From an uncultured Pelagibacteraceae bacterium (lineage in GTDB: Bacteria; Pseudomonadota; Alphaproteobacteria; Pelagibacterales; Pelagibacteraceae): a stretch of 33,053 nucleotides of DNA. Location: the NCBI GenBank assembly GCA_902555665.1, contig CACDTF010000011.1:1-33053 (forward strand), in the 5' to 3' direction. Under the pieces are notes generated by a model that was not told the DNA's origin, searched no databases, and saw nothing but the letters and a program-made list of their open reading frames with translations. A program made the position numbers and the translations under genes. Below, in pieces: positions 1 through 6,266 of the stretch (position 1 is its first letter; each line of letters begins with the position of its first letter).

Positions 1-102
1 ACTTTAGCGGGATTTAAAGTTCCTAAAAAAGTTGTGTTCTGTGATTTGCCAAAAACTTCGACAGGAAAAATACAAAAGTTTGAATTAAGAAAACAAGTTT
101 AG
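1..102 (+). CDS. dmdB: Acyl-CoA synthetase, C-terminal end only (probable 3-methylmercaptopropionate-CoA ligase)
   Basis: Only the last 33 codons are in the window. The frame reads through from base 1 and ends in TAG at 100-102. The residues give the C-terminal domain of AMP-forming acyl-CoA synthetases: a K-V-P-K-K-V-V-F strand, then L-P-K-T-S-T-G-K-I-Q-K. In this family the Lys of T-G-K-I is the adenylation lysine. The family joins a carboxylic acid to CoA through an acyl-adenylate. The sequence alone does not give the substrate. The dmdB assignment is inferred from position: the DMSP demethylase gene lies just downstream, and its product, methylmercaptopropionate, is the DmdB substrate. 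Another short- or medium-chain acid ligase remains possible. Confidence 0.7.
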   Translation, partial: TLAGFKVPKKVVFCDLPKTSTGKIQKFELRKQV

Positions 103-108
103 GTAATT

Positions 109-885
109 TTGAATTTTCAATTGGAAAATAAAAATGTTTATGCTTCTGATGCAGGACAGGGTATTGATCAAAATAAAGAAACAATAGTATTTCTTCATGG
201 AAGTGGTCTTTCACATATTGTATGGTCTCTAACTGAACAGTTTTTTTCAAATAATAATTTTAACGTATTATCTATTGATTTACCTGGGCATGGTAATTCT
301 GATGGCCCTTGCTTAGATAGTATTGAAAAAATAGCTGATTGGTTGGAACAGGTTTTTAATAAACTTAATTTAAATAATTTAATTTTAATTGGTCATTCTC
401 AAGGTTGCTTGGAGATACTTGAATATGCTCATAAATATAAAAATAGATTAAAAAAGTTAGTTTTTATCGGAGGGTCAAATAAGATGCCAGTTCATCCAGA
501 TCTAATTGATCTAGCAAAAAATGGGGACTCTAATGCTGTTAAATTAATGATGAAGTGGGGTTATGAAGGTTCAAAAAGATTTATTGGAGGTAACCCAGTA
601 GAAAAAATAATACAATCACCTCGAGATATAAGAGACATACTGGCGGTGGACCTTGTTGCATGTAACAATTACAAAAATGGTTCTGAAGCTGCTAAATTAA
701 TAGAATTTCCATCAATGTTTATTTTCGGCTCTCTAGATAAGATGGTAAATCTAGAAGCTGGAAAAAAATTTTCTAGTCTTATTAACAACTCATCTACACA
801 CATAATCGAGGGTTGCGGTCATATGATTATGATTGAAAAAGCATTCGAAATGAGAGACAAGGTCTTAGAATTTTTAAAAAAATGA
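109..885 (+). CDS. Alpha/beta hydrolase of unknown substrate, coupled to dmdA
   Basis: This is a 258-residue cytoplasmic alpha/beta-hydrolase-fold protein with no signal peptide. Visible fold marks are the oxyanion-hole H-G-S-G at 30-33, the nucleophile elbow G-H-S-Q-G at 95-99 (Ser97), an acid in F-G-S-L-D (Asp210), and the catalytic histidine in G-C-G-H (His238). Residues of about 130-195 would form the cap. The start is TTG at 109, with AGG just upstream and no suitable ATG nearby. The gene lies 6 bases after the ligase gene, and its stop overlaps the dmdA start as ATGA. It is therefore probably translated with the DMSP demethylation genes. Possible roles are an acyl-CoA thioesterase or ester hydrolase in DMSP or methylthio-acid metabolism. 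The sequence does not decide between these, and no role is established here. Confidence 0.85.
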
Positions 886-3005: not shown

Positions 3006-3386
3006 ATGGAAAACAGACCTTTATCACCACACATACAGATTTATAAATGGCATATTTCTTCATTAGTATCTATTTCACATAGAATAACAGGAATAATTAA
3101 TTTTTTTGCAATCACATTAATATGTATTTGGTTTGCATTAATGCTTCTAGGAGAAAGTAATTATCAAATTATAAAAATTTTTTTAGAAACCTTTTTAGGT
3201 AAATTTATTTTAATTGGAATAACCTGGTCATTTAGTTTTCAAATGTTAAGTGAAGTAAGACACTTGATTATGGATTTGGGCTATGGATTTGAATTACAAA
3301 CAACAAGAATTACAGGTTTGCTAGTTATTTTTGGTTCGATTATTTTAACTATCCTAATTTATATAATTGGCAGAGGATTAATATAA
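3006..3386 (+). CDS. sdhC: Succinate dehydrogenase cytochrome b556 subunit, lacking the heme-ligand histidine
   Basis: A 126-residue membrane anchor of complex II with three hydrophobic helices at about 28-50, 62-80 and 103-122. The N-terminal R-P-L-S-P-H and S-I-S-H-R-I-T-G motifs are typical. Ser22 and Arg26 correspond to the ubiquinone-site Ser27 and Arg31 of E. coli SdhC. The second signature normally reads H-x3-[GA]-x-R-H-x3-D. Here it is Q-M-L-S-E-V-R-H-L-I-M-D at 79-90, so the axial heme histidine is Gln79 (codon CAA, 3240-3242) and the small residue next to it is Glu83. His86 and the D-L-G-Y-G that follow align without gaps, so the substitution is not an alignment artefact. The stop overlaps the sdhD start as TAATG. 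Confidence 0.95.
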   Translation: MENRPLSPHIQIYKWHISSLVSISHRITGIINFFAITLICIWFALMLLGESNYQIIKIFLETFLGKFILIGITWSFSFQMLSEVRHLIMDLGYGFELQTTRITGLLVIFGSIILTILIYIIGRGLI

Positions 3387-3715
3387 TGCTGCCAGTAACA
3401 AAAAAATGGTTATTCTTAAAAATTAGTTCCGCAATCTTATTACCTTTAATGCTTTGGTTTATTATAAATTTAGTGAATATTTATGATAAAAGTTATTTGG
3501 AAATAGTGAATTTTTTAACAACGCAACCTTCTAAATTCTTAATTGGGTTATTTTTAGTTATTGCTTATTTTTTTTCAGCTTTGACTATAAGTGAGGTTTT
3601 TGAAGACTATATTAACGATAAAAAAACCAAAAATGCCGCAAACAAAGTCCTAAATTTTTTTGCTATAACAATCCCAGTAATTACAATAATTGTAATTTTA
3701 AACTTAAATACATGA
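3386..3715 (+). CDS. sdhD: Succinate dehydrogenase membrane anchor subunit, histidine-free
   Basis: A 109-residue second membrane anchor of complex II with helices at about 9-32, 50-70 and 86-106. Identity comes from its place between sdhC and sdhA and from the E-D-Y motif at 73-75. That Asp-Tyr pair corresponds to E. coli SdhD Asp82-Tyr83 at the quinone site. In the usual protein the heme-b histidine lies 11 residues before this aspartate; here that position is Phe63 (TTT, 3572-3574). The nearby packing glycine is Thr67. The protein contains no histidine at all. An eight-T run at 3568-3575 is a place where a frame error could be suspected, but the frame is intact on both sides. It overlaps sdhC by 1 base and sdhA by 4 (ATGA). 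Confidence 0.9.
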
Positions 3716-5487
3716 AAGCATATAATATTATAGACCATGAGTACGATGTTGTTGTACTTGGAGCAGGTGGATCAGGTTTAAGAGCAGCAGTAGGGCTTAG
3801 CGAAGCTGGCTTAAAAACAGCTTGTATCTCAAAAGTATTTCCAACTAGAAGTCATACATCAGCTGCGCAAGGTGGTATTTCAGCTGCACTCGGTAACATG
3901 GGTGAGGATGACTGGAGATGGCATATGTATGATACTGTAAAAGGTGCAGATTGGTTAGGTGATCAAGATAGTATTGAATATCTATGTAAAGAAGCTCCTA
4001 AAGCAGTTTTAGAATTAGAGAAATATGGGGTTCCATTTAGTAGAACTGAAGAGGGAAAAATTTATCAAAGACCATTTGGTGGAATGACAAAAAATTATGG
4101 AAATGGAATAGTTCAAAGAACTTGTGCAGCAGCCGATAGAACAGGACATGCTATTTTACACACATTGTATGGACAAGCGTTAAAGCATAATACAGAATTT
4201 TTTATAGAATATTTTGCATTAGATTTGTTGATGAAGAATGGAGAATGTAAAGGCCTAATTGCTTGGAATTTGAATGATGGAACAATTCATAGATTTAGAG
4301 CGCATACAGTAATTATTGCTACAGGTGGTTATGGTAAAGTTTATTATTCAGCAACATCAGCACATACTTGCACAGGTGATGGTAATGCAATGGTTTTAAG
4401 AGCTGGATTACCGCTTCAGGATATGGAATTTGTTCAATTTCATCCAACAGGAATTTACGGCCATGGTACATTAATTACAGAAGGTGCGCGAGGAGAAGGG
4501 GGGTATCTTACAAATTCTAAAGGTGAAAGATTTATGGAAAGGTACGCTCCAAATGCAAAAGATTTAGCATCAAGAGATGTTGTTAGCAGATCCATGTCTA
4601 TAGAGATTAATGAGGGAAGAGGTGTTGGAAAAGATCAAGATCATGTTCATTTGAACCTAAGTCACTTAGATAAAGAGGTTATTGAAAGCAGGCTTCCTGG
4701 AATTACTGATGCAGCAAGATTATTTGCAAATGTAGATGTAACTAAGGAACCAATTCCTGTTGTACCAACAGTTCATTATAATATGGGTGGTATTCCAACA
4801 AACTATAAAGCAGAAGTTTTAACTGTAAATGGCTCAGAAAAAACTGTTCCAGGTTTAATGGCTATAGGAGAAGCGGCATGTGTTTCTGTTCACGGAGCAA
4901 ATAGACTTGGTTCTAATTCTTTAATTGATTTAGTAGTATTTGGAAGAGCAGCAGCTAAAAGAGCAGCTGAATTAGTTAAGCCAGGAACACCTCATGAAGA
5001 AATTCCCGAGTCAGAAACACAAAAATGTTTAGATAGATTTGATAAACTTAGAAATGCAGAGGGAGATAACAGTACTGCAGAACTTAGACTTTCAATGCAA
5101 AAAACTATGCAGTCCAAATGTGCAGTTTTTAGAACAGAAAAAAATCTTAAAGAAGGTGTAGATGAGATTAAAAAAACCTATGATGGTATGGACACAATCT
5201 CAGTTAAAGATAGGTCTTTAGTATTTAATACTGATTTAGTTGAAACATTGGAATTTGATAATTTAATAAGACAAGCAGTAACTACTGTAGAATCTGCATA
5301 TCATAGAAAAGAGAGTAGAGGTGCCCACGCGAGAGATGACTATCCAAATAGAGATGACGAAAAGTTTATGCAACATACTCTTGCTTGGTGTGATGGGAAA
5401 AATACAAAGATAAGTTACAGAGAAGTACACAAATCAACTTTAACAAACGAAGTTCAATATTTTCCACCACAAGAGCGAGTATATTAA
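3712..5487 (+). CDS. sdhA: Succinate dehydrogenase flavoprotein subunit
   Basis: A 591-residue catalytic subunit that oxidises succinate to fumarate with covalently bound FAD. The FAD-binding G-A-G-G-S-G-L is at 17-23, and the flavin-attachment histidine is in [10 protein letters not shown] (His48). The active-site blocks [23 protein letters not shown] and N-R-L-G-S-N-S are all present, so it should be fully active. Length is normal for the family. The ATG overlaps the sdhD stop (ATGA) and its own stop overlaps sdhB (TAATG), so the four subunits form one tightly coupled operon. The peripheral subunits look ordinary, unlike the membrane anchors. Confidence 0.98.
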
Positions 5488-6266
5488 TGGTTCAATTGAG
5501 TTTACCTAAGAATTCTGAAATTAAAAAAGGTAAATACTTTAAAGATAAAACAGGATCAAAAAATTTAAGAAAAGTAAATATTTATAGATGGGATCCATCC
5601 ACAGATGAAGGTCCTAGGATAGACACTTATGAAGTTGACATGGATAATTGTCCTTCAAAGGTCTTAGATATTTTAAATAAGATCAAAAATGAAATCGACT
5701 CAACTATAACATACAGAAGATCTTGTGCTCATGGTGTATGTGGTTCATGTGCAATGAATATGGGGGGTAAAAATGGCCTTGCTTGCACCACTCCACATGC
5801 TGAAATTGAAGGAGATATTGATATTTATCCTCTACCTCATTTAAAGGTTAAAAAAGATTTAATTGGTGATTTGGATGGATTGTACAAACAGTATCAATCA
5901 ATTGAACCTTGGTTAAAAAATAACTCAACAAAACAGACAACAGAAATTTATCAGTCTAAAGAAGATAGAGCAAAACTTGATGGTGCTTACGAATGCATTA
6001 TGTGTGCTTGCTGTTCTACATCCTGCCCAAGTTATTGGTGGAATGGAGATAAATATTTAGGTCCAGCAGTTCTGCTACAGGCTTATAGATGGATTATTGA
6101 TAGTAGAGATGAAGAGAGAAAAGCTAGATTAAAAAAAGTTTCTGATGAATTAAAATTATATAGATGCCATACAATATTAAATTGTACAAATGCATGTCCT
6201 AAGGGCTTGAATCCAGCAAAAGCTATAGCTGAAATAAAAAAAATGTTAGCAACAGCTAATGTTTAA
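5487..6266 (+). CDS. sdhB: Succinate dehydrogenase iron-sulfur subunit
   Basis: A 259-residue electron-transfer subunit that passes electrons from SdhA FAD to quinone. The N-terminal ferredoxin domain has the 2Fe-2S cysteines Cys80, Cys85, Cys88 and Cys100. The C-terminal domain has Cys170, Cys173 and Cys176 followed by Cys180-Pro, and Cys227, Cys233 and Cys237-Pro, which supply the 4Fe-4S and 3Fe-4S clusters. All three clusters therefore appear intact, so electrons can reach the quinone without heme b. The start ATG overlaps the sdhA stop by 1 base. A 39-base gap to mmsA follows. Confidence 0.98.

What the first reader, a model, noticed from the sequence alone, without database searches (positions are those of the whole stretch)
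3006..3715. Complex II membrane anchors lack both heme b axial histidines
In E. coli-type succinate dehydrogenase the heme b ligands are one histidine in SdhC (His84) and one in SdhD (His71). Gapless alignment on the adjoining R-H-x3-D (SdhC) and E-D-Y (SdhD) motifs puts Gln79 and Phe63 at these sites. The small glycine four residues after each ligand, which packs by the heme, is Glu83 in SdhC and Thr67 in SdhD, and SdhD has no histidine anywhere. The quinone-site Ser22/Arg26 (SdhC) and Asp74/Tyr75 (SdhD), all SdhB cluster cysteines and the SdhA flavin histidine remain. This predicts a working ubiquinone reductase without heme b. An iron- or heme-saving change in an oceanic streamlined lineage is a plausible but unproven reason. 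I do not know of a description of this.
Basis: partly seen in the sequence, partly recalled or inferred. Interest (0 to 1): 0.78.

Follow-up and report, generated by a model that had tools for sequence, protein, structure and literature searches.

The report
SAR11 respiratory enzyme without heme ligands
The succinate dehydrogenase of this ocean bacterium (SAR11) has lost both amino acids that normally hold its heme, and so have nearly all the close relatives examined, so it probably works without heme, as yeast's enzyme was recently shown to do.

Summary
Confirmed. sdhC (3006-3386) has Gln79 and sdhD (3386-3715) Phe63 where E. coli has heme b ligands His84 and His71; Glu83 and Thr67 replace the glycines four residues on. 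Quinone-site residues, SdhB cysteines and the SdhA flavin motif remain. It is a lineage trait: in the window's genus-level group 107 of 112 readable genomes (114 examined) lack both His. Groups holding genomes that match SAR11 IIIa/LD12 isolates by length keep both (9 of 9); neighbouring groups lost one; a second family lost only the SdhC ligand. Of 137 readable non-SAR11 rows 132 keep both.
Best reading: a working, heme-free ubiquinone reductase derived from a class C enzyme. Heme-free yeast complex II suggests how: there Gly-to-Glu at the same +4 position replaces a heme propionate. Here the Glu sits in the other anchor (SdhC E83), probably paired with SdhD Lys12. Acid at +4 goes with ligand loss in 60 of 66 tree rows against 0 of 33, but independent contrasts are too few for significance.
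Heme absence was not measured; iron saving is unproven. Nine literature searches (listings, some passages) showed no description in SAR11. Heme-free complex II is known elsewhere: a new variant of a known kind.

The parts
3006..3386 (+). sdhC, large membrane anchor, 126 aa
   Evidence: TIGR02970 127.3 bits against cut-off 52.3; PF01127
3069..3083 (+). SdhC S22..R26: quinone-site Ser (E. coli 27), His25 (His30) and Arg26 (Arg31)
   Evidence: Ser and Arg present in every SAR11 row
3240..3242 (+). SdhC Gln79 (CAA) at the heme-ligand position (E. coli His84)
3252..3254 (+). SdhC Glu83 (GAA) in place of Gly four residues after the ligand (E. coli Gly88)
3261..3275 (+). SdhC His86 (E. coli His91, propionate contact) to Asp90 (counterpart of yeast Sdh3 Asp167 by spacing)
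   Evidence: roles from passages of PMC3290573 and PMC13066397
3386..3715 (+). sdhD, small membrane anchor, 109 aa, no histidine
   Evidence: TIGR02968 46.9 bits against cut-off 41.8
3419..3421 (+). SdhD Lys12 (AAA), E. coli Arg20 position
3572..3574 (+). SdhD Phe63 (TTT) at the heme-ligand position (E. coli His71)
3584..3586 (+). SdhD Thr67 (ACT) in place of Gly (E. coli Gly75)
3605..3610 (+). SdhD Asp74-Tyr75, quinone site (E. coli Asp82/Tyr83)
   Evidence: DY in 115 of 115 distinct SAR11 rows
3712..5487 (+). sdhA, flavoprotein, with the SHTSAAQGG flavin-attachment motif
   Evidence: TIGR01816 964.7 bits, cut-off 727.35
5487..6266 (+). sdhB, iron-sulfur subunit, all three cluster motifs
   Evidence: NF004616 354.6 bits, cut-off 228

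Best explanation
sdhCDAB encodes a working succinate:ubiquinone oxidoreductase descended from a class C enzyme (one bis-His heme b) that no longer binds heme. Electrons run FAD, [2Fe-2S], [4Fe-4S], [3Fe-4S], ubiquinone; the heme is off this path. In the ancestry of the window's genus and two neighbouring genera the SdhD ligand was lost together with Gly-to-Glu in SdhC (E83), Gly-to-Thr/Ser in SdhD (T67) and usually Arg-to-Lys in SdhD (K12); the SdhC ligand was then lost repeatedly (Gln, Phe). Proposed repair: the E83 carboxylate takes the place of a heme propionate and pairs with SdhD K12 (E. coli Arg20 site), mirroring yeast, where Glu112 of Sdh4 pairs with Arg97 of Sdh3; Asp90-Lys12 may repeat yeast Asp167-Lys73. 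Shown: sequences, distribution, conservation of catalytic residues, purifying selection. Inferred: heme absence, activity, the order of changes, the salt bridge.
For: Both ligands absent, catalytic and quinone-site residues kept. 107 of 112 readable g1 genomes lack both. dN/dS 0.036-0.148 (sdhC, 25 relatives) and 0.041-0.209 (sdhD, 24 of these, L018 dropped). No further sdhCD match at E 0.001 in 14 near-complete relatives and the own genome. A heme-free E. coli variant keeps a significant part of its activity and supports growth on succinate (PMC3290573 introduction). Natural heme-free yeast complex II with Glu at the same +4 position (PMC13066397 passages). Acid at +4 in 60 of 66 tree rows with a lost ligand, 0 of 33 without; outside SAR11 4 of 5 against 1 of 132.
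Against: No spectrum or structure. SdhC His25 and His86 could in principle give other ligands. Three g1 genomes carry His at the SdhD site and two at the SdhC site. In f2 genera g8 and g10 the SdhC ligand is lost without an acid at +4, as is the SdhD ligand in L126, whose locus (L289) lacked SdhB and so is not in the tree; one non-SAR11 row (L340) has Glu at +4 with both His kept. Independent contrasts for the acid rule reach only p 0.0625-0.125. Lys at the Arg20 site also occurs in enzymes with both His (7 of 132 non-SAR11 rows; g9 in SAR11). E. coli loses stability and some activity without heme.
Confidence: 0.85

Rival explanations
1. Heme b is still bound, through other ligands such as SdhC His86 or His25, or as five-coordinate heme.
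For: His86 and His25 remain; the SdhC anchor still matches the cytochrome b556 family. A paper title cited in PMC13066397 speaks of heme retention in E. coli axial-ligand mutants (title seen in a reference list only).
Against: Both ligands are gone, bulky Phe sits at one site and a carboxylate at the +4 Gly, and SdhD has no His at all. Yeast with one His left binds no heme. His25 itself is replaced in L168 and L264.
Confidence: 0.1
2. The heme pocket is filled by a lipid or another cofactor, as cardiolipin does in the Tetrahymena enzyme; the heme is replaced, not just dropped.
For: Cardiolipin takes the heme position in Tetrahymena complex II (PMC10227065 passages); yeast buries a phospholipid deeper.
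Against: Nothing in the sequence shows it; compatible with the best explanation rather than opposed to it.
Confidence: 0.3
3. Selection for saving iron or heme in the open ocean drove the loss.
For: The lost state fills the group that holds the marine Ia-length genomes, while groups matched by length to IIIa (the main SAR11 group of brackish waters) and freshwater LD12 keep the ligands.
Against: Ferrochelatase and bc1-type cytochrome b stay in 15 of 15 genomes tested; one heme is one iron of ten in a heme-bearing complex (established composition). The habitat contrast is essentially one clade against another, and the IIIa isolates IMCC9063 and HIMB114 come from marine sites while HTCC1062 is coastal (table).
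Confidence: 0.25
4. Assembly, frame or contamination artefact.
For: The window is from a 79% complete, 45-contig assembly.
Against: Same state in 60 of 60 further g1 genomes fetched, in 50 of 65 named Pelagibacteraceae/Pelagibacterales loci, and in single-contig genomes such as G011, G013 and G026.
Confidence: 0.01

Closest known systems
S. cerevisiae complex II (heme-free, cryo-EM; PMC13066397, passages seen)
   Same: Class C ancestry, SdhD ligand replaced (Tyr108), Gly-to-Glu at +4 in one anchor, Lys at the SdhD propionate site (mapping inferred), quinone site kept.
   Different: Yeast keeps the Sdh3 His and has the Glu in Sdh4; the window has lost both His and has the Glu in SdhC.
E. coli SdhCDAB and its engineered heme-free variant (PMC3290573 introduction read; the original variant paper not held)
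   Same: Same family and fold; the variant lacks heme yet supports growth on succinate.
   Different: E. coli binds heme; the variant is engineered, with lower catalytic rates, and heme is needed to stabilise the isolated enzyme.
E. coli fumarate reductase FrdABCD (class D)
   Same: Two anchor subunits, no heme.
   Different: The window's SdhD matches E. coli SdhD better in structure (Z 13.4 against 9.5 for 1kf6_D) and the anchors match the TIGR02970/TIGR02968 models in sequence.
Tetrahymena complex II (PMC10227065, passages seen)
   Same: Natural heme-free SQR.
   Different: Highly divergent, eight hydrophilic and seven membrane subunits, cardiolipin in the heme place; its authors class it as type D.

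Membership tests
Class C succinate:quinone oxidoreductase | SdhC and SdhD anchors of the cytochrome b556 / hydrophobic anchor families, three long helices each | tested here: met
   TIGR02970 and TIGR02968 above cut-off; SdhD helices 3-32, 49-75, 79-106; SdhC 17-47, 63-93, 97-125
Class C succinate:quinone oxidoreductase | One axial His for heme b from each anchor | tested here: not met
   Gln79 and Phe63
Class C succinate:quinone oxidoreductase | Bound heme b | not testable with these tools
   needs purified enzyme
Class C succinate:quinone oxidoreductase | Quinone-site Ser/Arg (SdhC) and Asp/Tyr (SdhD) | tested here: met
   Asp-Tyr in 115 of 115 distinct SAR11 rows
Class D (FrdABCD-like, heme-free) | Two anchors and no heme | not testable with these tools
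   heme absence predicted, not measured
Class D (FrdABCD-like, heme-free) | Descent from FrdC/FrdD anchors | tested here: inconclusive
   no FrdC/FrdD family for the two anchors at E 0.01; 1kf6_D matches with lower Z than SdhD; no tree of FrdCD was built

The most novel reading that the evidence does not exclude
Heme b of complex II has been lost naturally and repeatedly in bacteria, and the loss follows a structural rule: the glycine one helix turn after either ligand becomes a glutamate that stands in for a heme propionate, in SdhC in SAR11 subclade I-like lineages and in SdhD in several other alphaproteobacteria and in yeast. The complex II of the commonest ocean heterotrophs would then run without its textbook heme.
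Probability: 0.5. Interest if true: 0.75.

Novelty: new variant of a known kind. Interest (0 to 1): 0.66.

Why it matters
The role of heme b in complex II is a long-standing open question. SAR11 gives a natural series (both His, one His, none) in close relatives sharing the same operon, so its role can be tested by evolution as well as by mutagenesis. It also means that a textbook cofactor, and the label cytochrome b556 applied by annotation, would be wrong for a very abundant group of cells, and it bears on iron and heme budgets of ocean bacteria.

Tried and rejected
Artefact of one assembly: rejected (60 of 60 further genomes). A second heme-binding sdhCD set: no further match at E 0.001 in 15 genomes; one extra hit in G005 at E 0.226 inside a 494-aa frame, under the cut-off, was set aside. 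The Arg20-to-Lys change as a marker of heme loss: weak, since Lys also occurs with both His and contrasts are mixed. The acid rule as statistically proven: rejected, independent pairs 4-5 for and 0 against, p 0.0625-0.125; the Fisher p 1.8e-6 treats rows as independent and is given as description only. Single-sequence PDB search with SdhD gave only unrelated hits. A heterodimer model could not be made (one protein per job), so the E83-K12 pair is not tested in three dimensions. SAR11-order genomes without an SdhC match (32 of 297): 20 were checked with SdhA; 7 have a true SdhA, five of them cut at the N-terminal side; the rest show none or only distant flavoproteins. I read these mostly as assembly gaps, not proven.

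Rows dropped: L018 (sdhD unreadable) and L062 (contig end) in g1, L053 sdhD in g9; L145 (SdhC truncated) and L151 (other anchor type) outside SAR11. The 138 distinct non-SAR11 rows come from 158 loci: 157 readable in both subunits, 19 of them repeats of the same genome's locus or an identical one. The tree holds 99 of 161 possible rows: 42 named loci were left out as redundant and others because SdhA, SdhB or SdhD was not read; among these is L289, a ligand-loss row without acid. The dN/dS table covers 25 of the 29 nearest relatives; the script passed over four. Early regex tables missed or misplaced some motifs and were replaced by alignments; L242 is such a misplacement (both His).

Full report
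What is there. The window holds sdhC (3006-3386), sdhD (3386-3715), sdhA (3712-5487) and sdhB (5487-6266) in a tight operon. NCBIfam and Pfam assign all four above cut-offs. The genome (G000, 1.07 Mb, 45 contigs, 79% complete) has these two genes as its only PF01127 matches at E 0.001. Named relatives are Pelagibacteraceae, so the order is taken as SAR11. By SdhA+SdhB the nearest row is L165, uncultured Pelagibacteraceae isolate AG-390-G23, at 98% identity.

The two ligands. Read from the sequence: SdhC Q79 and E83; SdhD F63, T67 and K12, and no His in SdhD. The SdhD columns rest on a gapless profile alignment to E. coli 1nek_D and on a gapless structural alignment, 105 residues, Z 13.4, rmsd 1.8 to 2wdq_D, from a model with mean pLDDT 92.3. 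The SdhC columns rest on phmmer alignments to mitochondrial SDHC, which put Q79 on the heme His and E83 on the Gly; the SdhC monomer model (pLDDT 88.4) matches E. coli SdhC with Z 13.4 but rmsd 5.5. Quinone-site S22/R26 and D74/Y75, the Sdh[10 protein letters not shown] motif and the three SdhB cluster motifs are intact.

Distribution in the order. I examined 150 genomes by handle. Genus-level group g1 (the window's, own genome included): of 114, 107 lack both His, 3 lack only the SdhC His, 2 lack only the SdhD His, 2 unreadable. g5: 9 of 10 lack only the SdhD His, 1 both. g6: 2 of 6 lack only the SdhD His, 4 both. g2, g3, g4 and g7 (10 of 10): both His kept. In the second family f2, g9 keeps both in 2 of 3 (1 unreadable); g8, g10 and g11 (7 of 7) have lost only the SdhC His (Tyr or Asn). 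The g1 sample is not a random draw: 30 are the nearest to the window, 24 were picked for diversity or completeness and 60 were taken from the list. Of the 65 named Pelagibacteraceae/Pelagibacterales loci (the best 80 of 584 relatives were kept there), 50 lack both, 13 only the SdhD His, 2 neither. Many bear AG- names, which I recall as single-cell genomes, though part of the titles carry the tag MAG.

Names. Contig lengths agree with sizes printed for isolates in PMC3815206 Table 1 (passage): G011 1,308,759 and HTCC1062 1309 kb; G013 1,456,888 and HTCC7211 1457 kb; G026 1,343,202 and HIMB5 1343 kb, all subclade Ia, all lacking both His here (L259, L261, L263); G158 1,284,727 and IMCC9063 1284 kb, G007 1,237,371 and HIMB114 1237 kb, subclade IIIa, both His kept (L242, L249); G321 1,410,127 and HIMB59 1410 kb, both kept (L293). 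G009, 1,160,202, fits the LD12 isolate LSUCC0530, 1.16 Mbp (PMC6018831 passages), both kept (L248). These identities are inference from length.

Outside SAR11. Of 138 distinct rows (alphaproteobacteria and other members of the phylum; not a random sample, best matches and divergent ones were chosen), 132 keep both His, 5 have lost one or both, 1 is truncated. The five: L142, L143, L148 and L150 have Tyr for the SdhC His and Glu at the SdhD +4 Gly (L148 also lost the SdhD His); L126 has Tyr at the SdhD site and no acid. One row with both His (L340) has Glu at the SdhD +4 site.

History. A tree of SdhA+SdhB (99 rows, 849 columns, quick LG+G4 with SH-aLRT, no bootstrap) puts a clade with g1 (27 rows, support 100), one with g5/g6 (28 rows, 99) and the g7 pair (100) together (57 rows, 100), their order unresolved. 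On it the SdhC ligand state changes at least 11 times, the SdhD ligand 3, acid at SdhC +4 3 and at SdhD +4 4. The simplest reading is one combined change (SdhD His lost, SdhC Gly to Glu, SdhD Gly to Thr/Ser) followed by repeated loss of the SdhC His. In three g1 genomes the SdhD site is His again or still (L238, L277, L278); neighbouring rows have Tyr codons there, one base from His. Loss of one ligand followed by drift of the other fits a site no longer binding heme.

Selection. Against 25 close relatives dN/dS of sdhC is 0.036-0.148, and of sdhD 0.041-0.209 in 24 (L018 dropped). So the genes are not decaying. Asp-Tyr of the quinone site is kept in 115 of 115 distinct SAR11 rows.

Mechanism. 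In E. [quoted passage not shown] removal of heme did not turn E. coli Sdh into a strong producer of reactive oxygen (PMC5210497 passages). In heme-free yeast complex II (PMC13066397 passages) Tyr108 of Sdh4 replaces the ligand, Glu112 replaces a glycine and binds Arg97 of Sdh3 in place of a propionate, and Asp167 of Sdh3 binds Lys73 of Sdh4. By spacing to the Tyr of the quinone site (Tyr120 in yeast), Tyr108 and Glu112 are the window's F63 and T67 sites; Asp167 (ligand+11) is the window's D90; Lys73 falls on K12 from the range of the 9kps_D alignment, 1..108 to 62..156 (the 9qdl_D range would give 72). PMC3290573 (passage) notes that SdhD Arg20 and SdhC Arg31 are symmetry equivalents around the two propionates. 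The window's E83 is the symmetry mate of yeast Glu112, so its partner should be K12. This pairing is inference; no dimer model could be run.

How strong is the acid rule? In the 99-row tree 60 of 66 rows with a lost ligand have an acid at +4 in one anchor, 0 of 33 without loss do; L289, a loss row without acid, is not in that tree. Most of the 60 share one origin. On well-supported branches 4-5 independent pairs go with the rule and none against, p 0.0625-0.125; g8 and g10 are exceptions. It is a hypothesis with support, not a law.

Why lost? Ferrochelatase and bc1-type cytochrome b are present in 15 of 15 SAR11-order genomes tested, so heme is still made. One iron of ten per complex would be saved. 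The contrast of the Ia-like group with IIIa and LD12 fits an iron or heme economy but is one clade contrast, and the IIIa isolates come from marine sites. I leave the cause open.

Novelty. Nine searches in a library of 5.39 million open papers gave no description of missing heme ligands in SAR11 or other bacterial SdhCD in what I saw: the listed heads of each result (for instance 15 of 375, 10 of 247) and passages of the papers named here; most subscription papers and preprints are not in the library. Heme-free complex II itself is known: yeast and Tetrahymena and E. coli fumarate reductase. I file the case as a new variant of a known kind: class C by descent, failing the class C ligand test.

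Noticed in passing
L253-L257, L283 (f2 genera g8, g10) and L252 (g11): A second family of the order lost only the SdhC heme His (Tyr or Asn) while keeping the SdhD His and its Gly; possibly five-coordinate or no heme.
   Followed up: partly
L142, L143, L148, L150 (same genomes as L285-L288): Four other alphaproteobacterial lineages have Tyr for the SdhC His and Glu at the SdhD +4 Gly, the yeast-like arrangement.
   Followed up: partly
L340: An alphaproteobacterium with both His kept but Arg at the SdhC +4 site, Glu at the SdhD +4 site and Met at the Arg20 site: a possible intermediate or charge pair.
   Followed up: no
L151:1210-1881: A 0.9 Mb alphaproteobacterial genome has a single 224-aa anchor frame upstream of its flavoprotein, unlike sdhCD; looks like the one-subunit type (impression, not tested).
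   Followed up: no
L168 and L264, SdhC position of window His25: The His that packs against the heme in E. coli (His30) is Thr here, in genomes that also lack both ligands.
   Followed up: no
window 3006-3386: The NCBI equivalog model names this protein cytochrome b556 although it lacks the heme ligand.
   Followed up: no
G105, G132, G038 and others: 32 of 297 genomes of the order show no SdhC; of 20 checked only 7 have a true SdhA, five of them cut at the N-terminal side. Probably assembly gaps at this locus, worth a look.
   Followed up: partly
L147, L149 (genus g36, that of the HIMB59-length genome): SdhD has Gln at the +4 Gly while both heme His are kept.
   Followed up: no
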